Of a DNA stretch of 52,608 bases, positions 27,220-47,458 are shown in pieces. Under the pieces are notes generated by a model. It searched no databases, was not told the origin of the DNA, and saw nothing but the letters and a program-made list of their open reading frames with translations. Position 1 is the first letter of the stretch. Every line of letters begins with the position of its first letter. The position numbers and the translations under genes are program-made. The DNA comes from a virus: IMG/VR virus record IMGVR_UViG_3300031344_000200, positions 1-52,608 of that record. The stretch is one strand, 5' to 3'.

Positions 27220-27576
27220 ATGATCATCACCCCAGTGTCGATTCCCGACGACGAACGAGTTCATCGCACGACGACCGACATGCCAGTGGGAGCCAAACTC
27301 CCACCGAAGGCGCCTCGGTTCCCGAGGCCAGGTACGTTGGTCTTCACCGATCCGACCCCCGCCTTGCTGTTTGCCTGTTCGCACGTCATTGCCTGGCCCG
27401 ATGGTTGCTCAGTCACGGCGAACGATGACGCACTTAGTGCACTCGAAGTGGGTGACACCTGCCTGTTGTTGGCAGTGAGTCCCTTTCCCGGCGCGAGCAC
27501 GTCCTATGCCCGTGTCTTTGTCTCACGTTTGCAGCGAATCTGTTGGGTTCGCCTCGATTCTTTGGGGGAGGTCTAG
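27220..27576 (+). CDS. LGW-family protein, first of array
   Basis: 118 aa from ATG 27220, with an extra N-terminus of about 35 residues before RPGTLVF. DTCLLLAV is the middle strand and YARVFVSRLQRICWV the C-terminal signature, with CW in place of GW. The 19-bp hairpin at 27286 lies in frame and encodes PVGAKLP. Confidence 0.75.
   Translation: MIITPVSIPDDERVHRTTTDMPVGAKLPPKAPRFPRPGTLVFTDPTPALLFACSHVIAWPDGCSVTANDDALSALEVGDTCLLLAVSPFPGASTSYARVFVSRLQRICWVRLDSLGEV
27286..27304. repeat. 19-bp hairpin, GTGGGAG arms
   Basis: Loop CCAAA; in frame in the first array gene. The easternmost copy and the only one on a plus-strand gene. Confidence 0.8.
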
Positions 27577-27838
27577 ATGCAGATGATGCCCCCGGTCCAG
27601 ACCCTGTTCTTCACCGCGCAGCCCGGCCTCCTGTGGCGTCGCATGCACCCCGAGGGCCCGGGCTGTGGGATCTCCACACCGATGACTTGTGGGCCGGCGA
27701 CGCCTGTCTGCTGTTGTCTACATTCAACCGGGGGTCACCCCCGACCAGCGCAACGTCGCCTATGTCTGCGTCCTTGCCTCCCGCCTCATGAAGGTCGGCT
27801 GGGTTCGGCACGACATTCTGTCATGGTCATCACGGTGA
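27577..27838 (+). pseudogene. LGW-family gene with two frameshifts
   Basis: The family motifs are spread over three frames: PVQTLFF and GLLW in the ATG 27577 frame, DLWAGDACLLLS in the second, and VCVLASRLMKVGWV in the third, ending at TGA 27836. Both shifts are the same direction (one missing base each), in GGGCCCGGGC near 27650-27662 and CGGGGGTCACCCCC near 27730. Either a decayed gene or homopolymer sequencing errors. Confidence 0.75.
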
Positions 27839-28077
27839 TGCAACCCTCCTCCTCCTCCTCACCGCCGGGCACCCTCAAGAGGGTTTGCAGCGTGAACCTG
27901 TTGTGGCTCGGTGCGCGGCCTGGCGCGGGCTACGGCATTGACACCGAGGTCCTGCGGGTGGACGATGTCTGCCTGGTGCTGTCGGTCGGCCGTGACGTCG
28001 ATGATGCCTATGTCTTTGTCTCGCGCTTGCACCGGTGCGGTTGGGTCAAGTTGCGGTACCTGTGTGACATCACCTGA
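27838..28077 (+). CDS. LGW-family protein
   Basis: 79 aa, TGATG-coupled to the broken copy. Ser-rich start, then PPGTLKRV, LLWLG, DDVCLVLSV and YVFVSRLHRCGWVKL. Best intact example near the array start. Confidence 0.8.
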   Translation: MQPSSSSSPPGTLKRVCSVNLLWLGARPGAGYGIDTEVLRVDDVCLVLSVGRDVDDAYVFVSRLHRCGWVKLRYLCDIT

Positions 28078-28078
28078 G

Positions 28079-28107
28079 TGCATACTGTGCCAATACTGGC
28101 TTACCAT
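28079..28107 (+). promoter_or_regulatory. Promoter-like site inside the array
   Basis: -35 TGCATA, 17-nt spacer, -10 TACCAT, 8 nt to ATG 28116. Confidence 0.5.
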
Positions 28108-28115
28108 TGACCATC

Positions 28116-28313
28116 ATGGCCACCTCCTCCCCTTCTTTCGAAACCAATGAACTGCTGACCACCGACGACAGGGGCACCATCGTGTCCTTCGACTGTGCCA
28201 GTGCCGAGCGCTATGCCTTTTTGCCCGGGCACATCTCGCGGGGCACTCAGGTGCTGGCCAAGGTCGCCTATCATCCCGATGCCCAGCGTGCCTTTTATCG
28301 CAGTCGCAGGTGA
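28116..28313 (+). CDS. Hypothetical small protein within the array
   Basis: 65 aa. RGTIVSFDCASAERYAFLPG and GTQVLAKVAYHPDA are beta-like and loosely recall a cold-shock domain, but the RNP motifs are not clear. An upstream in-frame TTG (28107) lies in the promoter. Not an obvious LGW member. Confidence 0.6.
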   Translation: MATSSPSFETNELLTTDDRGTIVSFDCASAERYAFLPGHISRGTQVLAKVAYHPDAQRAFYRSRR

Positions 28314-28320
28314 GTGCACC

Positions 28321-28566
28321 TTGTCTTCCGTCAAACTTCAACCCGGTCACCTCGTCCCACCCCTCGGTGGCCTGTTGTGGCCACGGGTGCCGTCGCCTGA
28401 TTCAATCACTAGTGCTGACTACGCGAACCTGCGCGCTGCTGGTAACACCGTCGCCCTCGCCGCGGCCCAGGTCGTGAGGAGACTAGACGGGCAGGTATTT
28501 GCCTTCATCGTCACCGGTGAGGGTCAGTTGGGTTGGCTCAACACCTTCCACTTGGAGGTGTTGTGA
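28321..28566 (+). CDS. LGW-family protein
   Basis: 81 aa from TTG 28321. LQPGHLVPP, GLLW, NTVALAAAQ and VFAFIVTGEGQLGWL. The middle strand is alanine-rich, unlike CLVI in neighbours. Confidence 0.7.
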   Translation: MSSVKLQPGHLVPPLGGLLWPRVPSPDSITSADYANLRAAGNTVALAAAQVVRRLDGQVFAFIVTGEGQLGWLNTFHLEVL

Positions 28567-28784
28567 TGTCTGGGTTCGAGCCCGGCACCCTGTTCTTCGC
28601 CAACATCGGTGCTGTGCTGTGGGACACCGATCCCATACTGGCCACAGTCGGCACCAATAAGCGGGGCTACGTTACACTCAACGGTGCGGTGCTCATCGTG
28701 GGCATGGTCGACCGCGACTGTGGTTACGTCTTCGTCCTCGCTGCAGGTTGCTTTGGTTGGCTCAACAAGTGGGTGCTGTCGTGA
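28566..28784 (+). CDS. LGW-family protein
   Basis: 72 aa, TGATG overlap. EPGTLFF, AVLW, AVLIVGM, YVFVLAAGCFGWL. Confidence 0.8.
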   Translation: MSGFEPGTLFFANIGAVLWDTDPILATVGTNKRGYVTLNGAVLIVGMVDRDCGYVFVLAAGCFGWLNKWVLS

Positions 28785-28990
28785 TCTTCCTCGTCAATCA
28801 GACCGCCTTCCTGTGGCCCGAGCTCCCCCGCGCCGCCCATGGGCACGGGCCGATTGAAGTTGTCCACATGGATGACGTCTGCCTGTTGTTGGAGGCCTGG
28901 CCTCCGCGTCGTGAGTACATCCGTGTCTTTGCCTCACGGCACCAGCGAGCGGGTTGGCTCCGGACCAGCGCTGGGAGGGTGGTGCCGTGA
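28781..28990 (+). CDS. LGW-family protein
   Basis: 69 aa from GTG 28781 (GTGA). It lacks the PG motif at the N-terminus but has AFLW, DDVCLLLEA and VFASRHQRAGWL. Closest to 28987 and 27838 by the VF(A/V)SR pattern. Confidence 0.75.
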   Translation: MIFLVNQTAFLWPELPRAAHGHGPIEVVHMDDVCLLLEAWPPRREYIRVFASRHQRAGWLRTSAGRVVP

Positions 28991-29199
28991 TCCGCGTCGT
29001 CGATTGCGATGGATCCGGCCGCCTGTGGGATCGCAACCCTGGAAACTTTCGGGGGCTTGGTGCCCTGAAGGTTGGCGACATGCAGCGTGGCGACGTCTGC
29101 CTGGTATTGGGATTCGACGGTGCCTACGTGCACGTCTTTGTCTCGCGCCTGGAACGCAGTGGTTGGCTCCACACGTTCGGTATGAGGGACGCCACGTGA
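28987..29199 (+). CDS. LGW-family protein
   Basis: 70 aa from GTG 28987 (GTGA). RLWDRN, RGDVCLVLGF, VHVFVSRLERSGWL. No N-terminal PG. Confidence 0.75.
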   Translation: MIRVVDCDGSGRLWDRNPGNFRGLGALKVGDMQRGDVCLVLGFDGAYVHVFVSRLERSGWLHTFGMRDAT

Positions 29200-29411
29200 T
29201 GTTGGTTCCGGGTGACCTGCACGCCGTCAAAAGCCCCCACTTTGCCCTGTGGCGGTTCAGGAATGATAACGGAGGCTCGACTTACGTCATAGGTGATGTG
29301 GCCGTGGGTTGCCTGTGCCTCATCATCGCCAAGCGCAGCGACGTCGGCGAGTATGTCGACGTCATCATCGGCGACCAGATCGGTTGCCTTCACTACCTCG
29401 CACTGGCATGA
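29199..29411 (+). CDS. LGW-family protein
   Basis: 70 aa, TGATG overlap. VPGDLHA, FALW, GCLCLIIAK, YVDVIIGDQIGCL; Cys replaces the usual Trp. Confidence 0.75.
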   Translation: MLVPGDLHAVKSPHFALWRFRNDNGGSTYVIGDVAVGCLCLIIAKRSDVGEYVDVIIGDQIGCLHYLALA

Positions 29412-29617
29412 TGATATCACCGGGCACCATCACCCGGCCCGAGAGGCCCGTGTGGGCGCTCGACATGAATGAACTGCGAAACGCAGGCCCCAACTGGAGC
29501 ACCAGGCTCCCTGCTGGCACTGTCTGTTTGATCGTCTCGGGCCCCGGGCACCGTGGCTACTTCTGTGTTCTTGCCCTAGGGCGCCTGGGTTGGCTGACCG
29601 TCGAGGCATTTTGGTGA
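29408..29617 (+). CDS. LGW-family protein
   Basis: 69 aa, ATGA overlap. SPGTITR, VWALDM, GTVCLIVSG, YFCVLALGRLGWL. Confidence 0.8.
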   Translation: MMISPGTITRPERPVWALDMNELRNAGPNWSTRLPAGTVCLIVSGPGHRGYFCVLALGRLGWLTVEAFW

Positions 29618-29841
29618 TCGCCCCCGGTCAACTCAGGAAGGTGGGTGACCTCGAAGGAGGCGCATGGGCGCTGTGGACGTGCGCCGACGGCGCGGACGGC
29701 GTGAACCTTGGTTCTTTGCGCCCCGGAAGCCTTGTCTTCATCGTTGAAGTGAACCCGATTGAATTCCGCGTCCGGGTGCTGGCGACCGGACGGCTGGGCT
29801 GGTGTCACCGACACGCCGTCGAAGGGGAGGAAGTCAGGTGA
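29614..29841 (+). CDS. LGW-family protein
   Basis: 75 aa from GTG 29614. APGQLRK, AWALW, RPGSLVFIVE, RVRVLATGRLGWC. Confidence 0.8.
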   Translation: MIAPGQLRKVGDLEGGAWALWTCADGADGVNLGSLRPGSLVFIVEVNPIEFRVRVLATGRLGWCHRHAVEGEEVR

Positions 29842-30038
29842 AGCTGCAACCTGGCACCTTGGCCGTTATCACCCAACTGCCTTGTCTGTTGTGGTGGTTG
29901 GGCGACTGTGACCCCAACAACGCCGTTCACGGCGAGCCTTGCCTCATCATTGGTGCCGGCTATTCCCCCAAGTACGTCATTTGTATCGCACGGGGGCGAC
30001 TGTGCGAGGTTGCATATGCCTGGTTAAAGTCGCTGTGA
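29838..30038 (+). CDS. LGW-family protein, CEV variant
   Basis: 66 aa from GTG 29838. QPGTLAV, CLLWW, GEPCLIIGA, YVICIARGRLCEV. GW is replaced by CE, as in 30082-30327, so these two are sisters. Confidence 0.8.
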   Translation: MKLQPGTLAVITQLPCLLWWLGDCDPNNAVHGEPCLIIGAGYSPKYVICIARGRLCEVAYAWLKSL

Positions 30039-30050
30039 ATGTTCAACGCT

Positions 30051-30079: not shown

Positions 30080-30081
30080 TA

Positions 30082-30327
30082 ATGGTGTTGTCACCCGCCG
30101 ACGTGAAGTTCTCTCCGGGCACCTTGACCATGCCGACGCACGCCGCCTGCACATTGTGGTGGATGACAACAGACATCATCGCTTTCGTCAACGAAATGCC
30201 CAGCACTGCTTGGCCTGGCGAGTGTTTCTTCGTCATCACCCATTCTAAGGTTGATGCTGATTACGTGATTTGCCTTGCGCGCGGCAAACTGTGTGAGATC
30301 AATCGTAACTCCATAGTGGGAGTATGA
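30082..30327 (+). CDS. LGW-family protein, CEI variant
   Basis: 81 aa from ATG 30082; internal starts are possible (see promoter). SPGTLTM, CTLWW, GECFFVITH, YVICLARGKLCEI. Sister of the preceding gene. Confidence 0.8.
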   Translation: MVLSPADVKFSPGTLTMPTHAACTLWWMTTDIIAFVNEMPSTAWPGECFFVITHSKVDADYVICLARGKLCEINRNSIVGV

Positions 30328-30542
30328 TGCCGTCACCCACCGCGCCCGTCCCAGGAGCACTGATTGAGATCACGGCACCCATCATGGTCAGTTCATCTGA
30401 TCAGAACGGCACCGTCATCGAAGCCGGCCGGGTCGCGCTGGTCGTCGGTCGTCGATCAAATCACGGTCACCCGACGTTGTTGTTGATCGACGGTCGATTG
30501 GGCCTGACGTGGGCCCACCCCGGACGTTGGAGGCTGTTGTGA
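30324..30542 (+). CDS. LGW-family protein
   Basis: 72 aa, ATGA overlap. VPGALIEI, GRVALVVGR, PTLLLIDGRLGLTW. Confidence 0.75.
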   Translation: MMPSPTAPVPGALIEITAPIMVSSSDQNGTVIEAGRVALVVGRRSNHGHPTLLLIDGRLGLTWAHPGRWRLL

Positions 30543-30775
30543 CAGGTGACGATTGGCTCTATCAACCGGGTCAACTGACATTCCTGATCCCAGGTGCGGG
30601 TCTGTGGTTCAATCAAACACTGATCGATTATGTTCGCCGCGTCTGGCGTGAAGAACTGTGCCTCGTCATCGGCACCTCTGCTGGTGTCATTTCTAACAAC
30701 TGGCGGCCGACACTCGTCGTCACTAGTGATGGGCGATTGTTGTGGACTAGTGAACACTACCTGAGGCAGGTATGA
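30539..30775 (+). CDS. LGW-family protein
   Basis: 78 aa from GTG 30539. QPGQLTFL, GLWFN, EELCLVIGT, WRPTLVVTSDGRLLW. Near the minus-strand copy at 31220-31492 by NNWRPTLV versus NIWRPTLV. Confidence 0.8.
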   Translation: MTGDDWLYQPGQLTFLIPGAGLWFNQTLIDYVRRVWREELCLVIGTSAGVISNNWRPTLVVTSDGRLLWTSEHYLRQV

Positions 30776-30993
30776 AACTGGTGCCCGGACAGCTGGTCCT
30801 CTGCGACGCCGGGTGGAGAACTTGCGACGACGGAAGGATGCGTGGCTTTAACGTATTGAACAAGCCCGATAGCGTGTCACTCATCATCGCTGTGATCAGG
30901 ACATCAAAAAAATGGCAACTGGCACTCGTCCTCACCGGTGATGATCAGCTACTGTGGTGTAGCCACGTGTACCTGCATCGGGTGCCGACATGA
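30772..30993 (+). CDS. LGW-family protein
   Basis: 73 aa, ATGA overlap. VPGQLVLC, DSVSLIIAV, LALVLTGDDQLLW. Confidence 0.8.
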   Translation: MKLVPGQLVLCDAGWRTCDDGRMRGFNVLNKPDSVSLIIAVIRTSKKWQLALVLTGDDQLLWCSHVYLHRVPT

Positions 30994-31250
30994 GCGTGCT
31001 GCGACCCGGACAATTGATCACCGTCGTCCCGGGCGCGGTGTTGTGGAGCAATGAGACAATGCTACCCGCTGACTATGTCACCCAGGTGCAGCGCCCCACG
31101 CTGTGCCTCGTCATCTCGTGCCAAGATATCACCGGTGACCACCCGTTCATCCTGTTTGGTGATCAATTGCTGTGGGTCAGCTGTTTCGGCGTGCGCGAGG
31201 CCTGGGCACTTGAGCGAAGTCACGACCTAACGGTCGTCGGCTCCAAATAG
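30990..31250 (+). CDS. LGW-family protein
   Basis: 86 aa, ATGA overlap. RPGQLITV, AVLWSN, PTLCLVISC, PFILFGDQLLWV. Last gene of the first sub-array; its 3' end overlaps the convergent gene by 31 nt. Confidence 0.8.
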   Translation: MSVLRPGQLITVVPGAVLWSNETMLPADYVTQVQRPTLCLVISCQDITGDHPFILFGDQLLWVSCFGVREAWALERSHDLTVVGSK

Positions 31251-31492
31251 AAGGCTGAGCCAAACAGCACCCCTCCGTCGAGCGCACTGACCAACGTGGG
31301 TCGCCAGATGTTGCCATTGCACACCTCGCCGACGATGAGACACAGAAAATTGGTGCCCACCACGGGTTGCTGTAGGTCTACGTCGTGCCAGAGGGCACCG
31401 GCGATGGCCAGGGTACCGGGCAGCAGGTTCGCATCCGTTCGATCATTTGAGTCACCGTGAGGAATGTGTACCCGGGGACCTGTGTGAATCAC
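31220..31492 (-). CDS. LGW-family protein, inverted copy
   Basis: 90 aa from GTG 31492. LPGTLAIA, ALWHD, NFLCLIVGE, WRPTLVSALDGGVLFG. It lies head-on to the plus-strand sub-array and is most like 30539-30775, which suggests inverted duplication. Confidence 0.75.
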   Translation of the reverse strand: MIHTGPRVHIPHGDSNDRTDANLLPGTLAIAGALWHDVDLQQPVVGTNFLCLIVGEVCNGNIWRPTLVSALDGGVLFGSAFYLEPTTVRS

Positions 31493-33566: not shown

Positions 33567-33569
33567 TAG

Positions 33570-33598
33570 TGCAAGTTCCACCACGAACCTGGTAGAGT
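33570..33598 (+). promoter_or_regulatory. Promoter of the RecA-like ATPase gene
   Basis: -35 TGCAAG, 17-nt spacer, -10 TAGAGT. ATG 33629 is 31 nt beyond the -10, with GGAGATGCC as ribosome site. Confidence 0.8.
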
Positions 33599-33628
33599 TA
33601 GATCTCAACCGACGGAGATGCCGAGACA

Positions 33629-34420
33629 ATGGCCGAGATGAATCTGCACGTTGGGCGTGGTTTCAAGGCTGGGACGAAGATCAGCACCATCGCGGTGCCA
33701 CCCGAACTGCGGGTCAAGCACTCGACGGGCCTCGATTGGATCGACGAGGCGTTGGGCGGCGAAGGTGGCTTCACCGCGACGACGACGCTGATGCTGACGG
33801 GTGGCCCGGGCACCGGCAAGTCAACGCTGGTGCGCCAGTTGGCGTCGACGCTGACGGGTGCGGGTCACATCGTCGTCTACAACACGGGCGAAGAGAGCCT
33901 GTTTCAGGCCAAGCTGGCCGTTGAACGGTTGCAGTTGAAGCACGACTTCATGGTCGCCGAGGAGACTAACCTGCCTAAGCTGTTGAAGTTCCTCGACGGC
34001 GTCAAGAAGGCCAACCCGGGCAAGGTCATCGTCCTACTGCAAGATTCACTGCAGACGTTGAACGACATGAAGTACAAGGACGGTGGGACGACGGGCAACA
34101 CCCCGGTGCGCTGCACTGAGATGTTGGTCGCCTGGTGCCAGCAGAACTTCGCCTTCTGCATCTTCGTGGGACAATGTACCAAGGGTGGAGAATTCGCGGG
34201 CAAGAACACCATCCGCCACGCCATCGACGTCCATGCCCACCTGTCGTACGACGAGAACAAGAAGAGCCCGACGTTTGGGGGCCTGTTGTTCGAGGTCAGC
34301 AAGAACAGGTGGGGTTGTAGCGGGAAAACGTTCGTCGTCGCCTTGACCAAGACGGGCATCGAGAACCGCGGTTCATTCACCAAGGGTCAGGATTGGGTTG
34401 CACCTGATGACGCCGAGTGA
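33629..34420 (+). CDS. RecA/RadA-fold ATPase
   Basis: 263 aa. Walker A GGPGTGKST at 58-66, acidic loop NTGEES at 85-90 (RadA-like catalytic Glu), Walker B VIVLLQDS at about 133-140, followed by a sensor-like LVAWCQQNFAFCIFVGQCTK. This is the ATPase core of RadA/Sms. It lacks the N-terminal zinc finger and C-terminal Lon-like domain; TGLDWIDEALGG is the KaiC/RadA entry motif. Likely involved in recombination or helicase loading. Confidence 0.85.
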   Translation: MAEMNLHVGRGFKAGTKISTIAVPPELRVKHSTGLDWIDEALGGEGGFTATTTLMLTGGPGTGKSTLVRQLASTLTGAGHIVVYNTGEESLFQAKLAVERLQLKHDFMVAEETNLPKLLKFLDGVKKANPGKVIVLLQDSLQTLNDMKYKDGGTTGNTPVRCTEMLVAWCQQNFAFCIFVGQCTKGGEFAGKNTIRHAIDVHAHLSYDENKKSPTFGGLLFEVSKNRWGCSGKTFVVALTKTGIENRGSFTKGQDWVAPDDAE

Positions 34421-34673
34421 ATTGAAGCCCGGCGACCTCATCAAGTGGGTGTACACCCGTAACGGCAATGAGGTTGTCACGCATGAAGAGATATGGTCAT
34501 CCGTCGAGCATCGCTTCGTGCTCATCGGTGGCGTTAACCTGTTGGTCGCCCGCGCCGAAGGCATCCTGACGTGGTTGAACTGTAATGGGTTATCTCGCGC
34601 GCTCGAAGGCAGCCACGTGATCGGAGCGATCTTCCGCGCCGTTCGCATAGCGAAGACGAGTGATGTTCCATGA
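34407..34673 (+). CDS. LGW-family relative, PGDLIKW subgroup
   Basis: 88 aa from ATG 34407, overlapping the ATPase gene by 14 nt. LKPGDLIKWVY, IWSSV, IGGVNLLVA and ILTWL match the minus-strand relatives at 6836 and 17342. Starts the second sub-array. Confidence 0.75.
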   Translation: MTPSELKPGDLIKWVYTRNGNEVVTHEEIWSSVEHRFVLIGGVNLLVARAEGILTWLNCNGLSRALEGSHVIGAIFRAVRIAKTSDVP

Positions 34674-34945
34674 TCTCCACACCAACCCCAGCACCCTTTG
34701 TGCAGCCTACGATCCATGCACGTGGGACGTTGATCTTTCTCTACAATAAGAGGAAGTTGGTAACGGTCAGCATCCGCACTAGGCACCCCAAAGATGAGGT
34801 ACCATCACTGGTGATATATGCCCGGTGTGGCACTGCTGGTTTGATCATTGACTACGTGTGGTCAGCCAACATCTGGTGGATCTGTGTGCTAACGTCAGAC
34901 GGCATTGTTGGGTGGATCTTCGACAGTGACTTGGTGTTGGCATGA
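34670..34945 (+). CDS. LGW-family protein
   Basis: 91 aa, ATGA overlap. ARGTLIFL, TAGLIIDYV, WWICVLTSDGIVGWI. Confidence 0.8.
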   Translation: MISTPTPAPFVQPTIHARGTLIFLYNKRKLVTVSIRTRHPKDEVPSLVIYARCGTAGLIIDYVWSANIWWICVLTSDGIVGWIFDSDLVLA

Positions 34946-35157
34946 CGCCGCATGACGTCATTCCCGGAATGCTGGCAGTCTTCATGCACGCGTGGATTGG
35001 GTGGAAAGATCGCAAGACGTTGGCGCTGGGACACGCACACGAGGCAGGTGACGCGTGCCTCATTGTTCAGCAATGGGACGCCCTCCTGGACTATGTTCTC
35101 GTCCTGCACGCGGAGCGCTTGGTTTGGGTTTCAGTGTACTTCCTCGAAAACAGATGA
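34942..35157 (+). CDS. LGW-family protein
   Basis: 71 aa, ATGA overlap. IPGMLAVF, DACLIVQQ, YVLVLHAERLVWV. Confidence 0.8.
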   Translation: MTPHDVIPGMLAVFMHAWIGWKDRKTLALGHAHEAGDACLIVQQWDALLDYVLVLHAERLVWVSVYFLENR

Positions 35158-35429
35158 CAATGACCAACGAGGAGAAGTTGCTGCCCGGCACACTAGCGTG
35201 CCTCCGAAGAGACTATGGTGACAAGATTGCCGTTCGGATCGTGCACCCCGATCTGGGCACCCACCAAGGCCTGCCGATGGAACGCGTCGTCGTCTGGTAT
35301 GCTGCTGGCGTGGTGTGTCTGGTCATCAACAGTTGGCGGTTTGGCCTGTCATCCACGAGATGGGTCTGCTTGTTATTTGCCGATGCCTCGCTGGGTTGGG
35401 TCTTTCTTACTGACCTGGAACCGCTCTGA
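35154..35429 (+). CDS. LGW-family protein
   Basis: 91 aa, ATGA overlap. NEEKLLPGTLACL, KIAVRIVHP, GVVCLVINS, WVCLLFADASLGWVF. Clear tandem sister of 35483-35755. Confidence 0.8.
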   Translation: MTMTNEEKLLPGTLACLRRDYGDKIAVRIVHPDLGTHQGLPMERVVVWYAAGVVCLVINSWRFGLSSTRWVCLLFADASLGWVFLTDLEPL

Positions 35430-35441
35430 TTGAGTGTACCG

Positions 35442-35470
35442 TGCAAGTCGACGCCATGGTGTGATAGGAT
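35442..35470 (+). promoter_or_regulatory. Promoter inside the array
   Basis: -35 TGCAAG, 17-nt spacer, -10 TAGGAT; 12 nt to ATG 35483. Confidence 0.75.
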
Positions 35471-35482
35471 GAAAAGAACTCG

Positions 35483-36335: not shown

Positions 36336-36339
36336 GATT

Positions 36340-37078: not shown

Positions 37079-37080
37079 GG

Positions 37081-41555: not shown

Positions 41556-41896
41556 AGGCATACAACACCATCATGCACGGGCTGTGGATCAGTGGCCTGG
41601 GCTTAGCTGGAATTGTACTCGCCAGCTTTCTCGTACGTACGCCGGCGCCTGCTCCGCCCGACCCGCCCCGCGCGACGGGTGCCAACGTCACCCTGCGCGT
41701 TGAGGCCGAGTTCTCGCTCCACGGGCAGGACTGCGTCGTCGTCGGCGTCTTCGTCAACAACGGCAACCAGTGGGAACGCCTGCACCGCTTCACCGACTGT
41801 GGCCATGGCATCACGCCGGGTTCGATGCGGCCCGGCGGGCCCGACGGTGGCTCGTACAACGACGGTTGGTGGGATGATCGCCTAGGATCGCGGTGA
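41552..41896 (+). CDS. Membrane-anchored extracytoplasmic protein
   Basis: 114 aa from GTG 41552. Helix LWISGLGLAGIVLASFLV, a proline linker (PAPAPPDPP), then a beta domain with two cysteines (HGQDCVVVGVFVNNG...TDCGHG). Probably anchored in the inner membrane with a periplasmic domain. Confidence 0.75.
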   Translation: MKAYNTIMHGLWISGLGLAGIVLASFLVRTPAPAPPDPPRATGANVTLRVEAEFSLHGQDCVVVGVFVNNGNQWERLHRFTDCGHGITPGSMRPGGPDGGSYNDGWWDDRLGSR

Positions 41897-42279
41897 TGCC
41901 GTCCCAAGTCGTCATGTACCGTAGCAAAGGCCCACGTCATGGGCCTTACAATCGTGAAGAACCGATGTACACCCTCCGCACTCAATTTGATCACGGTGAT
42001 TGGGTGACGATGGGGTCGCGCGGCCAACCTGGAGCCTTTAGCCCGAGCATTGAACGTGTCCGACTACGTGATCCCGACACCAACCAGGACCTAGGCGAAG
42101 ATGCATTCATCTTGGGTGATTGTGTGAGGTCCGTACCAATCGACGGGAGGTTGATCTTCGTCATTTCCCGATGCGGGTTAGGTGCTCCATGGAATGGAGC
42201 CAATCTGGGCTTGGTGCTCGTACTCCTCGGTGGCGAGGTTGGCTATATGTGGGCAGCTGACCTGAAGAAAGTGCCATGA
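41893..42279 (+). CDS. LGW-family protein, long variant
   Basis: 128 aa from GTG or ATG at 41893/41896. FDHGDWVTMG, DCVRSV, LVLVLLGGEVGYMW. Longer loops than its neighbours. Starts the third sub-array. Confidence 0.7.
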   Translation: MMPSQVVMYRSKGPRHGPYNREEPMYTLRTQFDHGDWVTMGSRGQPGAFSPSIERVRLRDPDTNQDLGEDAFILGDCVRSVPIDGRLIFVISRCGLGAPWNGANLGLVLVLLGGEVGYMWAADLKKVP

Positions 42280-42551
42280 TCGACGCCAAAGCTGACCAAT
42301 GGTCGCCTGATGCCTGCATCAAGCCCGGCGACCTGGTGGTGCCCGTGCCCTACATGCCGCGCATCATCTTTAGTCACATCAACGGTGGTGACGACAGCAA
42401 CCTGTTCGCCGGTGGGTTGCAGGGTCGCCTCAATGCCAAGGCGCTGGTCATCACCATGCACAAGAAGGGTGGTGACACCGTCGTCTACGTGTTGTATGAC
42501 GACGGCAAGCTGGGCTGGGTGCTGCTCGAGAGCATCGAGGCCGCGCCGTGA
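42276..42551 (+). CDS. LGW-family protein
   Basis: 91 aa, ATGA overlap. KPGDLVVP, KALVITMH, VVYVLYDDGKLGWV. Confidence 0.8.
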   Translation: MIDAKADQWSPDACIKPGDLVVPVPYMPRIIFSHINGGDDSNLFAGGLQGRLNAKALVITMHKKGGDTVVYVLYDDGKLGWVLLESIEAAP

Positions 42552-42886
42552 TCGATGTCATCAAACACGTGATCGACATTAGGCCCGGTGACATCGTCGC
42601 GTGTAAACACCCCGTGGCGCTGTGGGACGATGTGAGGCTGAATCCCATCCCGGGTCGACAAGTCACGGTGTTTGGTACGGAAGTGCCAGCGCGTGCCCTC
42701 TTGACGGGGCTTATTGAAGGTGCCTTAATGTTCGTCGAGAAGCATGCCCTCGTCCTCGCGGTGATCGCCGTACCGAGCCTTTATTCCGATTACACCTCGC
42801 ATCCCACCTTGGTGCTAGTGAACACCAGTAAGCCGCGGATTAAATGGGTCTGGGGCTCGGCCCTTCGCGTCGTCGGAAGGCACTGA
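42548..42886 (+). CDS. LGW-family protein
   Basis: 112 aa from GTG 42548. RPGDIVAC, VALWDD, HALVLAVI, PTLVLVNTSKPRIKWV. Confidence 0.8.
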   Translation: MIDVIKHVIDIRPGDIVACKHPVALWDDVRLNPIPGRQVTVFGTEVPARALLTGLIEGALMFVEKHALVLAVIAVPSLYSDYTSHPTLVLVNTSKPRIKWVWGSALRVVGRH

Positions 42887-43155
42887 TGGGCCGCAAGTTA
42901 CTACGTACGGGTGACCTGGTGAGGAGCGTACACGTGGGTGGTCATGGTACGTGGGATCAACCATTGCCGTCGGTGTTTGTACCTCGCATGGTGTCAGCGA
43001 CCGGGACATTCAAGTTCGGATTATTGTTGGCAGAGCGAACCATCACCGATGTCGACGGGCGACATGAAAAAGACGTTGCATGGGCGTTTGTCTTTGACAG
43101 TGCATCAATGAAAAAGGGCTGGACGCTGGTCAAGTTCTTGGTGAGGGTCAAGTAA
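42886..43155 (+). CDS. LGW-family protein
   Basis: 89 aa, TGATG overlap. RTGDLVRS, FGLLLAER, AWAFVFDSASMKKGWT. Confidence 0.8.
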   Translation: MGRKLLRTGDLVRSVHVGGHGTWDQPLPSVFVPRMVSATGTFKFGLLLAERTITDVDGRHEKDVAWAFVFDSASMKKGWTLVKFLVRVK

Positions 43156-43186
43156 TGAGCTACACTCAGTCCGAAAGCACTTCGTG

Positions 43187-43429
43187 ATGAGTTACATCGA
43201 CAGGCCACCCGCACCCGGTGACATCGTGTTGGTTCGCGGTGATGAGCCCGTTTCGGTATGGAGCTCCGTTAGCGCCGGCGAGCTCCTCGTCGTGCGCAGT
43301 CGCCTAGGCGTGGTGATGCCGGGTGGCCTAGGCCTCGTCATCAATCGTCGGCGGGACTACACCTACGTGTTGTGGTCAATGCCGTCGGTGTTGGGCTACG
43401 TGTCGGACGGCTACCTGCGTAAGGTGTGA
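43187..43429 (+). CDS. LGW-family protein
   Basis: 80 aa from ATG 43187; an in-frame GTG precedes it. APGDIVLV, LGLVINRR, YVLWSMPSVLGYV (GY for GW). A short duplicated start (MSYTQ... versus MSYID...) lies just upstream at 43154. Confidence 0.8.
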   Translation: MSYIDRPPAPGDIVLVRGDEPVSVWSSVSAGELLVVRSRLGVVMPGGLGLVINRRRDYTYVLWSMPSVLGYVSDGYLRKV

Positions 43430-43433
43430 TGCA

Positions 43434-43700
43434 ATGGTGAAGATGACTAGGTCACATTACTCACGCCTCACCACAAGGCCGGGGAAGTTATATGGCGTGC
43501 GACCGGGTGCTGCGCTCTATGAGAACCTCGATGAACGCCAAGCATGGTGGAACGGTCGGGGCATCGCGGCTAAAAATCACATGGTAGCGCTGGTCATTGC
43601 CATAGAGTCACCGAAAAATAAGGGCACATGCTATTCGCTGTGCCTCGTTGATGACCAGGTGGGTTGGCTGTTCAATGATGAGTTGAGGTTCTTGCCGTGA
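43434..43700 (+). CDS. LGW-family protein
   Basis: 88 aa. RPGKLYGV, MVALVIAI, YSLCLVDDQVGWL. Confidence 0.8.
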   Translation: MVKMTRSHYSRLTTRPGKLYGVRPGAALYENLDERQAWWNGRGIAAKNHMVALVIAIESPKNKGTCYSLCLVDDQVGWLFNDELRFLP

Positions 43701-43936
43701 ACAACGGGTCACTGTTACTACCCGGTGTCCTTGTCAAGGTGGTGCCATTGCCACGCAACAACATCTTTTCACTGTGGGCCTCCAACGATGTCACCAATCA
43801 CGATCGTGTAGGTCGTCCCACCGCGGGGGCGTTGGGCCTCGTCATCGGCCAATGTGACCAGTTCCTCGTCTGTGTCTTTTGGTCGGAGTTGGCCATCATG
43901 GCATGGGTTGACAACACCGTCGTGGCGCCCGTATGA
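43697..43936 (+). CDS. LGW-family protein
   Basis: 79 aa from GTG 43697. LPGVLVKV, SLWAS, LGLVIGQC, LVCVFWSELAIMAWV. Similar SLWAS/VWAS with 43933. Confidence 0.8.
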   Translation: MNNGSLLLPGVLVKVVPLPRNNIFSLWASNDVTNHDRVGRPTAGALGLVIGQCDQFLVCVFWSELAIMAWVDNTVVAPV

Positions 43937-44166
43937 TAGATCACGAATGGTTACCCGGCGACTTCGTGCAACTCGACGCACGTTGGACCTCTCTCAAGGT
44001 GGCCGTGTGGGCGTCGGTCGATGTGGGCGTTAACGACTGTGTGGGCCACGTTGAGCCAAGCGTCATGGGCGTCGTCATCGCTCACCGAGACGGTTTTGTC
44101 TACGCGTTGTGGGGCAATACGCTGGGTTGGATCGTTGAACGCGGCATCATATTGGTGCCGACGTGA
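43933..44166 (+). CDS. LGW-family protein
   Basis: 77 aa, ATGA overlap. LPGDFVQL, VWASV, MGVVIAHR, FVYALWGNTLGWI. Confidence 0.8.
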   Translation: MIDHEWLPGDFVQLDARWTSLKVAVWASVDVGVNDCVGHVEPSVMGVVIAHRDGFVYALWGNTLGWIVERGIILVPT

Positions 44167-44462
44167 CGTTCACCAAGCGCCTCCGTCTACATTTTCACGG
44201 GCGACGGGCGCTACCTGGTGATGTCGTCGTGTTCAATGGCTACGCGTTGCTTTATACCAAGCCCGCCGTGCGCGCTCACATTGGCGGAGCGCCGGGCGGC
44301 ACCAGCGCTCTTGTAATCGGCATCAACCGGCACTTGGACTGGGTGTTGGTCTGGATCATCGGCACCCATGGTGCTCAGGTGAAATGGGGTTGGGTTCGGA
44401 CCGAATACACCAATGTCATCTCATCACCGCGGTTTGCTCAGGTACAGGATGATGATGTATAG
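44163..44462 (+). CDS. LGW-family protein
   Basis: 99 aa from GTG 44163. LPGDVVVF, SALVIGIN, WVLVWIIGTHGAQVKWGWV, acidic tail. Confidence 0.8.
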   Translation: MTFTKRLRLHFHGRRALPGDVVVFNGYALLYTKPAVRAHIGGAPGGTSALVIGINRHLDWVLVWIIGTHGAQVKWGWVRTEYTNVISSPRFAQVQDDDV

Positions 44463-44468: not shown

Positions 44469-45227
44469 GTGATTGAATATGTTAGAGAGGTGCAGTCCTT
44501 CGACCTAAGCAAGATGCGTAAGGCATGTGCCTCGGCGGCGGACACGCTGCAGGCGGCGGGTGCCATCGTTCGCCCGGGCTCGACGACGGCCGCCCTCAAC
44601 GACTTTGTCCACGATCACACCGTCGCGCGGGGCGGCATCCCGGCACCGCTCAACTACCACGGCTTCCCGCGCAGCGTCTGCACCAGCGTCAATGACGTCG
44701 TCTGTCACGGCATCCCAGGTGCACTCGTCCTATGCGACGGCGACATCATCAACATCGACGTGACGACGATCCTTGACGGCCACTTCGGCGATTGCAGCGC
44801 CACCTTCTACGTGGGCACCCCGTCACCCGACGCACGGCGATTGGTGGAACTGACCCGGCTGGCGTTGGAAACGGCGGTGGGCATTGTCGGGCCCGGGGTG
44901 AGGTTGGGTGCGATTGGCCAAGCGATTGAACCACTGGCAAGGGCAGGGGGCTGCACCGTGGTGCGTGAGTTCGGTGGTCACGGCATCGGCACCCTGTTCC
45001 ACACCAAGCCACACGTCAATCACTGGGCCTGCGGCGACCAGACGGTGCTGAAGGTGGGTGATGTCTTCACCATCGAACCCATCCTGTGCTTGGGAGCGCG
45101 TGACGTCTACGTGGAGGCCGACGGCTGGACAGTGCGGACTTACGACAAGGGTTGGAGTGCACAGTTTGAGCACACGGTGTTGATCACCGACGACGGCTGT
45201 GAGGTGCTGACGTGCTCGAAGAGGTGA
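44469..45227 (+). CDS. map: Methionine aminopeptidase, type I
   Basis: 252 aa from GTG 44469. Removes N-terminal Met from new proteins. All catalytic residues are visible: His 80 (VCHGIP), metal ligands Asp 97 (NIDV), Asp 108 (FGDC), His 171 (FGGHGIG), Glu 203 (TIEP) and Glu 234 (AQFEH). Length fits the cytosolic type I enzyme without extension. It interrupts the LGW array and overlaps the following member by 4 nt. Confidence 0.92.
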   Translation: MIEYVREVQSFDLSKMRKACASAADTLQAAGAIVRPGSTTAALNDFVHDHTVARGGIPAPLNYHGFPRSVCTSVNDVVCHGIPGALVLCDGDIINIDVTTILDGHFGDCSATFYVGTPSPDARRLVELTRLALETAVGIVGPGVRLGAIGQAIEPLARAGGCTVVREFGGHGIGTLFHTKPHVNHWACGDQTVLKVGDVFTIEPILCLGARDVYVEADGWTVRTYDKGWSAQFEHTVLITDDGCEVLTCSKR

Positions 45228-45415
45228 ACCAGTTTGCGTTGATTGTGGCGCATGAGCCGAAGTGCGCCGCGCTTCAAGGGGCTCGTGACATCGCACCCGG
45301 CGCGCTGGTGTGTCGATCCACGGAGTTGATCCCAAGGCGCTTGGGCCTCGTCATTGGGCGCCCACCTTCCCGCGCACGATACCCGTCGTATTATGTCTGG
45401 GTGTTGTGGTCGTAA
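45224..45415 (+). CDS. LGW-family protein, truncated
   Basis: 63 aa from GTG 45224 (GTGA overlap with map). APGALVCR, LGLVIGRP, YYVWVLWS and then stop, so the last strand with GW is missing. Confidence 0.75.
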   Translation: MNQFALIVAHEPKCAALQGARDIAPGALVCRSTELIPRRLGLVIGRPPSRARYPSYYVWVLWS

Positions 45416-45729: not shown

Positions 45730-45738
45730 GGTGATGCA

Positions 45739-46086
45739 GTGAAGCTGGCAACCACGTGGACGACGTTGATAGTTCACGTCGATCGTCGACAACAGGTAAA
45801 CGAGTTCGAGCGGCTGGCGTGGCAACCCCGTCCCGGTGACCTCGTCTGTGACGTTAGCTTTCGCCATACTTCCTTGGGTGTCGTGGTCAGTGCCGTGGTC
45901 AATGACGACGATGGTGTCGAGCAGGTGAAGGTGCTGTGGTCACGCATGCCCATGCTGTTCGACGATGATGATGTGAACGTGTTTAGACGCAAGCTCGCCG
46001 CGGCGCTTCAAGTGCCCGCAGACTTCCTCGGCCTTACACACCCTTACACACCCTTACACACCCTTACACACCCTTACACGCGGTGA
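45739..46086 (+). CDS. LGW-family protein ending in a repeat-encoded tail
   Basis: 115 aa from GTG 45739. RPGDLVCD, LGVVVSAV, VKVLWSRM, then a polar stretch and a tail translated from five 10-bp repeats (LTHPYTPLHTLTHPYTR). Because 10 is not a multiple of 3, repeat slippage would change the end of the protein. Confidence 0.75.
   Translation: MKLATTWTTLIVHVDRRQQVNEFERLAWQPRPGDLVCDVSFRHTSLGVVVSAVVNDDDGVEQVKVLWSRMPMLFDDDDVNVFRRKLAAALQVPADFLGLTHPYTPLHTLTHPYTR
46031..46080. repeat. Five tandem 10-bp repeats, CCCTTACACA
   Basis: Three perfect central units flanked by two with single mismatches. The minus strand reads repeated GTGTAAG, which equals the -35 variant of this genome's promoters. Confidence 0.9.
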
Positions 46087-46099
46087 CCTGAGCGTGGTG

Positions 46100-46111
46100 T
46101 AAGATCTGAGG
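46100..46111 (+). promoter_or_regulatory. Possible -10 of a leaderless promoter
   Basis: TAAGAT followed by 6 nt and ATG 46112. No recognisable -35 at 17 nt; the 10-bp repeats end there. Confidence 0.35.
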
Positions 46112-46507
46112 ATGGCAGCACCGGGATCGCTAAAGGGGACGCTTGAATCGTGCGAACTACAACTAGGAGATCTCTGCGTCTACACGGTCGACGACAAGTT
46201 GTCGCAATTAAAGAACCACGTCATCTATCAGGTCGTCAAGAAGGATGCTCTCGAATCAACGAGCTATGCCAACCATCGCTACGCTTTCCGTGCGGCGTTC
46301 GACGTGACCAGTCCCGTAGGCGACAGCATCGACTCATTTGTCGTACTAGGCACCCGTGGTTTGCGCCGACTGACACTATTAGATCTCTGCACCATACGCC
46401 TGCACTTGGACGACTTCATCAGGCAATACGCTCGCGAGTGTGGTGCGGAGTCGGACAGTGACCGATCTCAAGACGGGCAACCTAGTACAGCTCTGGCAAC
46501 TCCGTGA
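46112..46507 (+). CDS. Hypothetical protein, possible distant LGW relative
   Basis: 131 aa. ELQLGDLCVYTVDD at residues 15-28 resembles a PGDL start, with DSFVVLGTRGLRRL later; helical C-terminus. Its end overlaps the next gene by about 50 nt. Confidence 0.7.
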   Translation: MAAPGSLKGTLESCELQLGDLCVYTVDDKLSQLKNHVIYQVVKKDALESTSYANHRYAFRAAFDVTSPVGDSIDSFVVLGTRGLRRLTLLDLCTIRLHLDDFIRQYARECGAESDSDRSQDGQPSTALATP

Positions 46508-46766
46508 TTCGTTCTCGATCAAAGCCAAGCGTGTGCCAGAGTTGTTCGATCGCGCGAAGACAAGAACTGAGGTAGATGCCATCATGGTGGGAGTCATCCC
46601 CGCGGGTACCTATTGCCTCTACATCGCCAGCCAGCAGTTGGCGCCCCCGAAGATCAAGTTCAACCTCGGAGCTATCACTGCACACCTCGTCCTGTGGAAG
46701 GGCCGACCAATTTGGGTGTCGTCGAGCGACTGTGAATTACGTGTCATCAATGACAGGCATGCATGA
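46458..46766 (+). CDS. LGW-family protein
   Basis: 102 aa from GTG 46458; an in-frame GTG at 46440 is an alternative. KTGNLVQLW, GTYCLYIA, AHLVLWKGRPIWV. Confidence 0.7.
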   Translation: MTDLKTGNLVQLWQLRDSFSIKAKRVPELFDRAKTRTEVDAIMVGVIPAGTYCLYIASQQLAPPKIKFNLGAITAHLVLWKGRPIWVSSSDCELRVINDRHA

Positions 46767-46975
46767 TGCTGCCCGTGCCAGGTAATCTCCTGCGTCGGAT
46801 ACACTACCGTGGTAAAGGCGACTTGGTGCCATGGCACTTCGCCTTCGTCATTGCGGTGCCCGATGACCCTGACGTCAATAGTTTTGATGATAGGGTGACC
46901 ATTGTGGTTGACAATGGCAAGGTTGAGGCATATAGTTACGCCTATATCGGCACATGGTGTGAGGTTGTCAAGTGA
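46763..46975 (+). CDS. LGW-family protein, diverged C-terminus
   Basis: 70 aa, ATGA overlap. VPGNLLRR, FAFVIAVP, VTIVVDNGKVEAY. Confidence 0.75.
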   Translation: MMLPVPGNLLRRIHYRGKGDLVPWHFAFVIAVPDDPDVNSFDDRVTIVVDNGKVEAYSYAYIGTWCEVVK

Positions 46976-47199
46976 GGTCGGCAAAGAACCTGAAACCGGG
47001 CGACATGTTGCAGAGCTTGCAGAGCTCTGCCTCCAACATCGAGTGGATCACCGCGCTGGTCATCGGTGTTGAGCCGTTCACTGACAGATCTGTGGGCAAC
47101 CTCGCAAAGGCTACCGTCACGGTCTTCACTGACGAGTGTAAACTACGTCACTACACCGACTATGAGTGCAAGTCAACAATGATGGCATTCAATGCGTGA
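46972..47199 (+). CDS. LGW-family protein, diverged C-terminus
   Basis: 75 aa from GTG 46972. KPGDMLQS, TALVIGVE, VTVFTDECKLRHY. Confidence 0.75.
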   Translation: MRSAKNLKPGDMLQSLQSSASNIEWITALVIGVEPFTDRSVGNLAKATVTVFTDECKLRHYTDYECKSTMMAFNA

Positions 47200-47458
47200 T
47201 CGTGAATTTTCCCCCGCTAACATCGAGGTTGGGACATTCTTCTTCTTTATCGCCAATCCGAACGGCGATGGGTGGACCATCTTCTCCATAGATCCGAACG
47301 CCGGCATCGATCGGGCGGTACCGTGGTTGCTGTTGGCGCGTGACTATAAGATGGCAACGGTGGGTGGCTGGTACATGTATCAGTTGCTGGGACCCGGGCC
47401 CACGGTGATCTGGCACACGGGTTCGTTGGGTTGGATCAGGCGGATCGTCACCGAGTGA
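47192..47458 (+). CDS. LGW-family protein, last of array
   Basis: 88 aa. IEVGTFFFF, PWLLLARD, GPTVIWHTGSLGWI. Overlaps the previous gene by 8 nt. Confidence 0.75.
   Translation: MRDREFSPANIEVGTFFFFIANPNGDGWTIFSIDPNAGIDRAVPWLLLARDYKMATVGGWYMYQLLGPGPTVIWHTGSLGWIRRIVTE

What the first reader, a model, noticed from the sequence alone, without database searches (positions are those of the whole stretch)
27220..47458. Array of more than 40 diverged paralogues with a PG(T/D)L...CLVI...LGW pattern
Gene after gene of 65-100 codons shows the same three landmarks: PGTL/PGDL near the N-terminus, a CLVI-type strand mid-way, and a (L)GW motif about ten residues from the end. Spacing is constant while sequence identity is low. 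Members are joined by ATGA, GTGA or TGATG overlaps, and the array is split into three sub-arrays by unrelated genes. This is an extreme paralogue expansion of what looks like one small SH3/KOW-like barrel. The scale suggests diversification against many targets, such as host proteins, defence systems or surface ligands. The function is unknown.
Basis: partly seen in the sequence, partly recalled or inferred. Interest (0 to 1): 0.92.

Follow-up and report, generated by a model that had tools for sequence, protein, structure and literature searches.

The report
Jumbo-phage array of SH3-like paralogues
A giant virus of bacteria carries about forty short genes in a row that are diverged copies of one small barrel-shaped protein, probably a toolkit of binders against host cell targets, and a related virus has grown its own largely separate set.

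Summary
The array is real. A profile finds 34 members (E<=1e-3) between 27,280 and 44,462. Three more are tied in by BLASTP, two copies are degenerate and five tail genes stay unproven. Two further members lie at 19 kb on the minus strand. HMMs from random halves of 42 candidates place 91% of the other half above the 99th percentile of shuffled decoys. AlphaFold2 gives two members, 25% identical, SH3-like barrels (pLDDT 90 and 87). The window lies inside a 216-kb jumbo myovirus record. A relative (369 kb, tail sheath 67% identical) has 39 members, mostly a separate set. Neighbours are more alike than chance, as tandem duplication predicts. Pfam and PHROGs give no significant match, nor do four members against 50,697 cultured-phage records. 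Arrays of more than 30 small genes are already published for jumbo phages 121Q and G; the 121Q array read here has a similar layout but another, helical-looking family. So: a new family of a known kind. Most likely function, inferred only: early cytoplasmic binders diversified for host take-over or anti-defence. Orthologue pairs show purifying, not positive, selection.

The parts
27280..27576 (+). member 1 of sub-array 1 (start codon uncertain)
   Evidence: profile E 4e-12
27543..27838 (+). frameshifted member (N-terminal and C-terminal halves in different frames)
   Evidence: GDACLLLS half in one frame (by eye), C-terminal half W|27686-27838 E 0.04 in another
27835..28077 (+). array member
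   Evidence: profile E 4e-12
28321..28566 (+). array member
   Evidence: profile E 4e-7
28566..28784 (+). array member
   Evidence: profile E 6e-13
28781..28990 (+). array member (lacks PG motif)
   Evidence: profile E 7e-8
28987..29199 (+). array member
   Evidence: profile E 7e-10
29199..29411 (+). array member
   Evidence: profile E 8e-13
29408..29617 (+). array member
   Evidence: profile E 2e-9
29614..29841 (+). array member
   Evidence: profile E 3e-12
29838..30038 (+). array member
   Evidence: profile E 3e-9
30082..30327 (+). array member
   Evidence: profile E 5e-12
30324..30542 (+). array member
   Evidence: profile E 3e-6
30539..30775 (+). array member; AlphaFold2 model 1 (pLDDT 90.1)
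   Evidence: profile E 4e-11; model
30772..30993 (+). array member
   Evidence: profile E 3e-11
30990..31250 (+). array member
   Evidence: profile E 7e-13
31220..31492 (-). array member on the minus strand
   Evidence: BLASTP 41% over 63 aa to member 30539, E 7e-5; not among the profile hits
33569..33605 (+). promoter-like motif ahead of the ATPase and sub-array 2
   Evidence: motif score 31.5; sequence
33629..34420 (+). KaiC/RadA-like ATPase ahead of sub-array 2; a homologue (70%) lies at 84.4-85.2 kb beside the array of the 369-kb relative
   Evidence: Pfam KaiC E 8e-8
34670..34945 (+). array member, sub-array 2
   Evidence: profile E 2e-9
34942..35157 (+). array member
   Evidence: profile E 3e-10
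35160..35429 (+). array member
   Evidence: profile E 2e-11
35441..35477 (+). promoter-like motif just ahead of member 35483 (12 nt between its -10-like hexamer and the ATG)
   Evidence: motif score 22.2
35483..35755 (+). array member
   Evidence: profile E 4e-13
35752..36057 (+). array member with an insertion
   Evidence: profile E 3e-7
36054..36335 (+). array member
   Evidence: profile E 1e-6
36340..36597 (+). array member
   Evidence: profile E 9e-11
36594..36839 (+). array member
   Evidence: profile E 5e-11
36836..37078 (+). array member
   Evidence: profile E 6e-11
37409..37675 (+). array member
   Evidence: profile E 5e-14
37881..38153 (+). array member
   Evidence: profile E 7e-10
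38143..38406 (+). array member
   Evidence: profile E 2e-8
41893..42279 (+). probable member, sub-array 3
   Evidence: BLASTP E 7e-6 over 46 aa to family member G005 7371; not among the profile hits
42276..42551 (+). array member
   Evidence: profile E 2e-11
42548..42886 (+). array member
   Evidence: profile E 1e-6
42886..43155 (+). member by orthology
   Evidence: BLASTP E 5e-7, 1e-5, 1e-5 to members of G005, G012, G004; passed only 4 of 12 half tests
43184..43429 (+). array member with orthologues in four other phage records
   Evidence: profile E 5e-13
43434..43700 (+). array member
   Evidence: profile E 1e-12
43697..43936 (+). array member; AlphaFold2 model 2 (pLDDT 87.2)
   Evidence: profile E 2e-10; model
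43933..44166 (+). array member
   Evidence: profile E 2e-9
44163..44462 (+). array member
   Evidence: profile E 3e-8
45212..45415 (+). truncated member, stop before the LGW strand
   Evidence: profile E 1e-5 among 17 queries, not listed at E<=0.1; sequence
   Evidence: profile E 2e-10
   Evidence: profile E 2e-7
46440..46766 (+). unproven member
   Evidence: above the 99th percentile of shuffles in 11 of 12 half tests but profile E 0.016 among 17 queries

Best explanation
A birth-and-death array of about 40 single-domain SH3-like barrel proteins in the accessory, probably early-expressed, region of an uncultured jumbo myovirus. SHOWN: the genes are one diverged family, arranged as tightly packed, often overlapping genes; adjacent members resemble each other more than random ones; two members are predicted with confidence to be the same kind of small SH3-like barrel; a related jumbo phage has its own, largely separate set. 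INFERRED: tandem duplication creates copies; the hydrophobic core and the PG..L / LVI / GW framework are kept while loops and surface drift; each intact copy is a cytoplasmic binder. The set is kept because different copies block or redirect different host proteins, such as defence-system components or take-over targets. Copies are lost, as the frameshifted and truncated members suggest, when a host stops presenting the target. Possibly the first step of each new copy is a dosage amplification of the kind seen experimentally with tifA in T4.
For: One family: half/half HMM test, profile. Fold: two models of members 25% identical to each other, pLDDT 90.1 and 87.2; the top structural matches include bacterial SH3b domains (4krt Z 9.5, 66 residues, 2.0 A, model 2; 4epc Z 8.4 and 5jqc Z 7.6, model 1), Tudor, KOW and SH3. 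Tandem duplication: mean identity of adjacent members 0.235 against 0.200 in shuffled orders (1 of 5,000 as high) in the window, 0.264 against 0.240 (6 of 5,000) in G004. Lineage-specific blooms: of members with a BLASTP hit at E<1e-3, the best lies in the own genome for 21 of 29 in the window and 30 of 36 in G004; on a 99-row tree the window label needs 15 changes against 29.5 shuffled, G004 21 against 30.8 (0 of 500 shuffles each), with a 13-row G004-only fork at SH-aLRT 92. No single charge type: net charge runs from -5 to +5 (36 window) and -7 to +4 (39 G004); the best conserved columns are P, G, W and aliphatics. Promoter motif at score 19 or more: 16 in the window and 12 in the rest of the parent, 11 of these at 195-212 kb and one (weak) at 0-140 kb, where the tail sheath lies. 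Precedent: T4 amplifies tifA against toxIN (PMC9391042, abstract); the GIY-YIG endonuclease SegB drives amplification of anti-defence loci (PMC13096335, abstract and Discussion).
Against: No target, binding partner, expression time or phenotype is known. pN/pS of 11 orthologue pairs (10 G012, 1 G003, each with G004) is below 1 (median pN 0.37, pS 0.68) with pS saturated: purifying selection, no sign of positive selection. The tree is poorly resolved (4 of 96 inner branches starred, 55 open), and the labels of the four smaller sets (G012 11 rows, G005 6, G002 3, G003 2) are not clustered at all; in G004 only 6 of 39 members have their nearest relative within two positions (window 15 of 36). Three columns are charged in about half of the rows (D after PG 47 of 84, E/D before LVI 44 of 87, R/K before LGW 41 of 87), so a shared surface feature is not excluded. 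'Early' rests on where a motif lies, not on RNA. A few members are conserved across five phage records (43184 family), so not all turn over. The 309-kb relative G002 has only four distinct family members, but its contig begins about 11 kb before the gene that follows the array in G004, so its array may be missing from the assembly. The homing-endonuclease link is weak: 4, 1 and 0 GIY-YIG genes in G001, G004 and G002, three genomes only.
Confidence: 0.5

Rival explanations
1. Relic of repeated duplication with little function: copies arise by unequal recombination or homing-endonuclease breaks, and a headfull-packaging jumbo capsid tolerates the extra DNA.
For: Tandem signature; a frameshifted and a truncated copy; 4 GIY-YIG genes in the parent, one downstream of the array at 50198-51061; Hua 2017 proposes jumbo genome growth by tandem duplication (PMC5646251, passages).
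Against: 37 of the 39 copies placed in the span are open and keep the same core columns at about 20% mean identity, which unselected genes would not be expected to do; pN is about half of pS in 11 orthologue pairs.
Confidence: 0.17
2. Nucleic-acid- or RNA-polymerase-binding regulators of one common type (KOW/Tudor-like), many copies with slightly different sites.
For: KOW (5ohq Z 8.1, 4zn3 Z 7.4) and Tudor domains are among the structural matches; phage G has about 35 copies of a zinc ribbon suggested to be transcription factors or DNA-binding proteins (PMC7824862, passage); one column before LGW is R or K in 41 of 87 rows.
Against: Net charge is centred near zero and runs both ways; no KOW or Tudor Pfam family among the hits of 51 members at E<=1, though HMMER's filters drop most weak matches.
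Confidence: 0.15
3. Virion or capsid-surface proteins, or pieces of one hetero-oligomeric assembly built from many barrels.
For: SH3b domains often bind cell-wall material (recalled); many paralogues could build a mosaic assembly.
Against: The array lies far from the tail sheath genes of the parent (6-13 kb) in a region of small genes with its own promoter motif; no signal peptides by eye; in 121Q none of the 27 genes 321-347, a look-alike array, carries the label 'structural protein' that the record gives to other genes.
Confidence: 0.08
4. Toxin or antitoxin-like barrels (MazF/PemK type), a stack of small toxins or decoys.
For: The MazF family also has an SH3-like barrel and an N-terminal GDI/V..V motif (recalled); Iyer 2021 notes an SH3-fold protein in jumbo phages related to those in nucleic-acid-binding toxins (PMC7824862, passage).
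Against: No PemK/MazF or CcdB family among the Pfam hits of 51 members at E<=1; no partner genes alternate with the members; the C-terminal LGW strand is unlike the MazF helix (from memory of MazF).
Confidence: 0.05

Closest known systems
[quoted passage not shown]
   Same: Jumbo myoviruses; a long run of small paralogous genes. In the 121Q array read here (genes 321-347, 156.2-162.5 kb) 22 of 27 genes form one BLASTP family (median identity of the hits 34%), mostly 69-90 aa, many overlapping.
   Different: Different family: helical-looking by eye, with an LGTNYQEYYV motif; the present profile finds 0 hits at E<=1 in 121Q and one at E 0.06 in G. Whether genes 321-347 are the very array Hua meant was not checked, and the array of phage G was not read.
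Phage G expansion of about 35 zinc ribbons (Iyer 2021, PMC7824862, passage read)
   Same: Lineage-specific expansion of a tiny domain in a jumbo phage.
   Different: Zinc ribbon, not an SH3-like barrel; its genomic arrangement was not read here.
Bacterial SH3 domains (SH3_3, PF08239) of autolysins and endolysins
   Same: Among the best structural matches for both models; similar C-terminal G-W strand.
   Different: No sequence membership: 1 of 51 members at E 0.079; stand-alone, no catalytic domain, no signal peptide seen.
T4 tifA segmental amplification against toxIN (Srikant 2022, PMC9391042, abstract) and SegB-driven amplification (Chihara 2026, PMC13096335, abstract and Discussion)
   Same: Duplication of counter-defence loci in T-even phages; in Chihara a GIY-YIG endonuclease drives it, and a GIY-YIG gene lies near this array.
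   Different: Those are recent amplifications selected in the laboratory; here the copies are old and about 20% identical.
Multigene families of poxviruses, asfarviruses and cytomegalovirus (recalled)
   Same: Arrays of small paralogues of one fold serving as diversified host-defence antagonists: the proposed analogy.
   Different: Eukaryotic viruses, other folds; no homology claimed.

Membership tests
Jumbo-phage tandem paralogue arrays (121Q/G kind) | jumbo genome, over 200 kb | tested here: met
   window lies inside a 215,857-bp record; relative of 369,475 bp
Jumbo-phage tandem paralogue arrays (121Q/G kind) | 30 or more paralogous small genes in tandem | tested here: met
   34 members by profile in three sub-arrays
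Jumbo-phage tandem paralogue arrays (121Q/G kind) | copies 'very similar' (Hua's words) | tested here: not met
   mean pairwise identity 0.20 in the window, 0.24 in G004; the hits within the 121Q array read here also have a median of only 34%
SH3-like small barrel fold | small all-beta barrel with a short helical turn before the last strand | tested here: met
   two AlphaFold2 models: 7 and 6 strands of 3 or more residues and a three-residue helical turn before the last strand; VIA-align Z up to 8.4 and 9.5, most rows under 8; predicted, not solved; 2 of 37 members
SH3_3 (PF08239) sequence family | score above the Pfam gathering cut-off | tested here: not met
   1 of 51 members at E 0.079; the other 50 below the listing limit
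Any PHROG family | significant HMM match | tested here: not met
   51 members scanned against 38,880 families, best E 0.0046, each of the 5 families listed hit by one member only
PemK/MazF toxins | Pfam match | tested here: not met
   not among the 14 families listed for 51 members at E<=1
Anti-defence protein array | members neutralise host defence systems | not testable with these tools
   needs expression and plaque assays
Early genes | transcribed early in infection | not testable with these tools
   only the place of a promoter-like motif was tested

The most novel reading that the evidence does not exclude
The array is a phage counterpart of the multigene families of large eukaryotic DNA viruses: a fast-turning repertoire of one small barrel whose copies each antagonise a different host defence or take-over target, re-grown largely independently in each jumbo-phage lineage. 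Unrelated folds (SH3-like here, helical-looking in 121Q) would be used for the same strategy, so 'paralogue array of small early proteins' would be a general marker for undiscovered anti-defence genes in jumbo phages.
Probability: 0.33. Interest if true: 0.9.

Novelty: new variant of a known kind. Interest (0 to 1): 0.68.

Why it matters
Large paralogue arrays in jumbo phages have been noted as signs of genome growth, but in the passages read here their function is at most suggested (zinc ribbons as possible transcription factors). This one has a fold that can be predicted, a relative with its own bloom, and a cultured look-alike in E. coli phage 121Q. That look-alike also differs between relatives: in the 9 other matching records the best place is 80-90% identical, and only 2 cover at least 80% of it; PBECO4, reported 98.26% identical over 95% to phAPEC6, which is itself 98.94% identical over 96% to 121Q (PMC7247149, passage), has 65% of the array at 86%. 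If such arrays are anti-defence repertoires, they mark dozens of untested inhibitor genes per genome, and the idea can be tested in E. coli K-12.

Tried and rejected
Pfam and PHROGs scans of 10, 28 and 51 members: nothing significant. Profiles against PDB sequences: best E 0.19 and 0.37. tblastn against 50,697 cultured-phage records: window members 35483 (E<=1), 43184 and 37409 (E<=0.1) none; one G004 member (E<=10) 24 Gordonia records, the 20 listed at E 2 or above. Bacterial genomes with the best conserved orthologue family: one 28-residue match in a Roseibium contig, read as chance. Foldseek with model 1: no match at E<=1e-3 in PDB or in the viral library, best E 0.10 and 0.013; model 2 was compared by VIA-align only.

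Records without the family: 6 of 10 with the first profile at E<=0.01 and 5 of 13 with the second at E<=1e-3, all of them short contigs (6.5-17 kb) fetched for their sheath gene; none in the two 270-kb phages with a GroEL 41% identical and in two shorter records. These are too short or too distant to show loss.

'Array-poor relative' argument dropped: G002 (309 kb) has four distinct members over two searches, but its contig begins before the place where the array would lie.

dN/dS as proof of diversifying selection rejected: pS saturated, pN below pS; the 'other genes' rows of that call contain spurious antisense frames and are not used as a baseline. Gene 37116-37430 and the genes 34407, 17342 and 6836 were first taken as candidates and set aside: 37116 does not match; the other three belong to a separate dispersed family, profile-profile probability 59% to the array. 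45433 and 47192 have relatives in other records, but these relatives are not in the family. VIA-align ranks SH3b, Tudor, KOW and SH3 close together, so the SH3-like subclass is undecided.

Literature searches: (no paper). Seen: passages of PMC5646251, PMC7824862 (with abstract), PMC13282480 and PMC7247149; abstract of PMC9391042; abstract and Discussion of PMC13096335; all other papers only as listings. No paper on this family turned up in those searches.

Full report
WHAT THE WINDOW IS. The 52,608-bp window is a whole IMG/VR virus record. It lies inside a 215,857-bp record, IMGVR_UViG_3300028654_000384 (G001 below): 100% identical over 20,270 bp and over 2,836 bp, one mismatch in 3,772 bp; a third record agrees with one mismatch in 13,457 bp. 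G001 encodes two tail-sheath-like proteins and a GroEL, so I read it as a jumbo myovirus. Its first sheath is 26-36% identical to the 15 cultured-phage records listed.

IS THE ARRAY REAL? Yes. I collected 49 candidate genes, set 7 aside as doubtful and tested 42. HMMs built from random halves (24 tests of 21 genes) placed on average 91% of the unseen half above the 99th percentile of 2,100 shuffled sequences and 83% above the 99.9th; members 42886, 46763, 46972 and 47192 passed in fewer than half of their tests. A profile of 28 members, iterated over 5,649 stop-to-stop frames of the window and of fetched pieces of five records, settled on 87 frames at E<=1e-3: 36 in the window, 39 in the related record G004, 6 in G005, 3 in G002, 2 in G003 and 1 in the rest of G001. 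Three more span genes are tied in by BLASTP (31220 minus, 41893, 42886). One copy is frameshifted (27543-27838) and one ends before its last strand (45212-45415). The family is dense in one place: the rest of the parent holds one member at E<=1e-3.

ANATOMY. Three runs on the plus strand: 27280-31250 (15 members), 34670-38406 (12) and 41893-44462 (9, two of them by BLASTP only), plus one minus-strand member at 31220-31492. Of 34 same-strand neighbour pairs among the 36 profile members 12 overlap by 4 nt and 5 by 1 nt; 25 lie within 20 nt. A KaiC/RadA-like ATPase stands ahead of the second run and an M24 peptidase (methionine-aminopeptidase-like) follows the third. The best conserved columns are P-G, the L and V after it, a W half-way, the LVI strand and a final G-W; three further columns are charged in about half of the rows.

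FOLD. AlphaFold2 with paralogue alignments gave pLDDT 90.1 for member 30539 and 87.2 for member 43697, which are 25% identical. Both are small all-beta proteins with a three-residue helical turn before the last strand. Structural comparison gives bacterial SH3b domains (4krt Z 9.5, model 2; 4epc Z 8.4, model 1), Tudor, KOW and eukaryotic SH3; most rows have Z under 8, which the tool warns may mean only a common arrangement. The Foldseek E-values of model 1 are weak, best 0.10 in PDB and 0.013 among viral models, as expected for so small and common a fold. The two alignments share rows, so these are not fully independent tests, and only 2 of 37 members were modelled.

EVOLUTION. Neighbours are more alike than in shuffled orders (window 0.235 against 0.200, 1 of 5,000; G004 0.264 against 0.240, 6 of 5,000), though in G004 only 6 of 39 members have their nearest relative within two positions, against 15 of 36 in the window. 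I read this as tandem duplication. The related record G004 (369,475 bp, sheath 67% identical) has 39 members in the 100 kb fetched, and all 34 hits of a search of the whole record lie there. Among members with a hit at E<1e-3, the best stays within the genome for 21 of 29 window and 30 of 36 G004 members. On a 99-row tree both labels cluster far more than shuffled, with a 13-member G004-only bloom, but few forks are firm and the four smaller sets do not cluster. A handful of members have orthologues: 43184 in G004, G005, G012 and G013, 42886 and 41893. Eleven orthologue pairs between G004 and G012 or G003 show pN 0.37 against pS 0.68 (medians), so the genes are maintained; positive selection is not shown.

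EXPRESSION. A motif GTGYAAGT-N13-TGGTAGRRTTAGATC occurs 16 times in the window at score 19 or more and 12 times in the rest of the parent, 11 of them at 195-212 kb and one, weaker, at 0-140 kb. Twelve of the window copies trained the matrix; ten shuffled windows gave 0-4 hits each at the lower score of 14. In 10 of the 12 training copies the motif runs straight into ATG. One copy lies just ahead of member 35483 and one ahead of the ATPase of sub-array 2. I infer an early or middle promoter class; there is no RNA evidence.

HOW IT MOST LIKELY WORKS. Small cytoplasmic barrels with a fixed core and free loops are good binding scaffolds. Lineage-specific birth and death in an accessory region is what counter-host genes tend to show. 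T4 amplifies tifA to beat toxIN (PMC9391042, abstract), and the GIY-YIG endonuclease SegB promotes amplification of anti-defence loci (PMC13096335, abstract and Discussion); a GIY-YIG gene sits at 50198-51061. I therefore favour a repertoire of diversified binders against host targets. The steps shown are family, fold (predicted), tandem origin and lineage-specific turnover; binding, targets and timing are inferred.

WHAT IS KNOWN. [quoted passage not shown] Iyer 2021 about 35 zinc ribbons in phage G (PMC7824862, passage); [quoted passage not shown] I read 121Q genes 321-347: 22 of 27 form one family (median identity of the hits 34%), mostly 69-90 aa and many overlapping, but helical-looking and without similarity to this profile. 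In the 9 other matching records the best place for that array is 80-90% identical, and it is covered to at least 80% in only 2 of them. So the arrangement is known, the family is new as far as these searches reach, and a similar layout has been filled by different families.

Noticed in passing
window 6756-, 9045-, 25858-, 25907+, 32270-, 32905-, 33242-, 33417+, 39612+ and others: A family of near-identical promoter-like sites GTGYAAGT-N13-TGGTAGRRTTAGATC; 10 of the 12 best run straight into ATG, 6 nt after the -10-like hexamer, so leaderless mRNAs are expected. 16 in the window and 12 in the rest of the parent at score 19 or more; two in relative G005, none in the fetched G004 pieces by exact search for TTAGATCATG.
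   Followed up: partly
window 34407-34673 +, 17342-17695 -, 6836-7177 -, and ten places in G001 pieces L006, L007, L009, L012, L013: A second, dispersed paralogue family (MKPGDLIEWVY...LWSS...IGGVHLLIS...LTWLPLG), 13 copies aligned, 33-51% identical to the first. Profile-profile comparison with the array gives 59% probability; no match in cultured phages for the one member searched (E<=0.01).
   Followed up: partly
window 50198-51061 +: GIY-YIG homing-endonuclease-like gene near the array; the parent has four, relative G004 one, G002 none.
   Followed up: partly
window 12219-17157 -: Run that by eye looks like an exopolysaccharide export set (glycosyltransferase 2-like, HlyD-like, TolC-like, glycosidase-like); no Pfam hit at E<=1e-3 for the four proteins. 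An OmpA-family protein lies at 10866-11906.
   Followed up: no
window 44469-45227 +: M24 peptidase (methionine-aminopeptidase-like) directly after sub-array 3.
   Followed up: no
L054 12236-15194 and RCC1-like genes in L055/L054 (phage 121Q): 121Q also has a second run of about twelve 60-residue genes that look alike by eye and a run of genes annotated RCC1-like.
   Followed up: no
L010 5992-7374 (G001 105992-107374): A 460-residue protein whose N-terminus looks like isocitrate lyase (by eye, not searched) in the parent phage.
   Followed up: no
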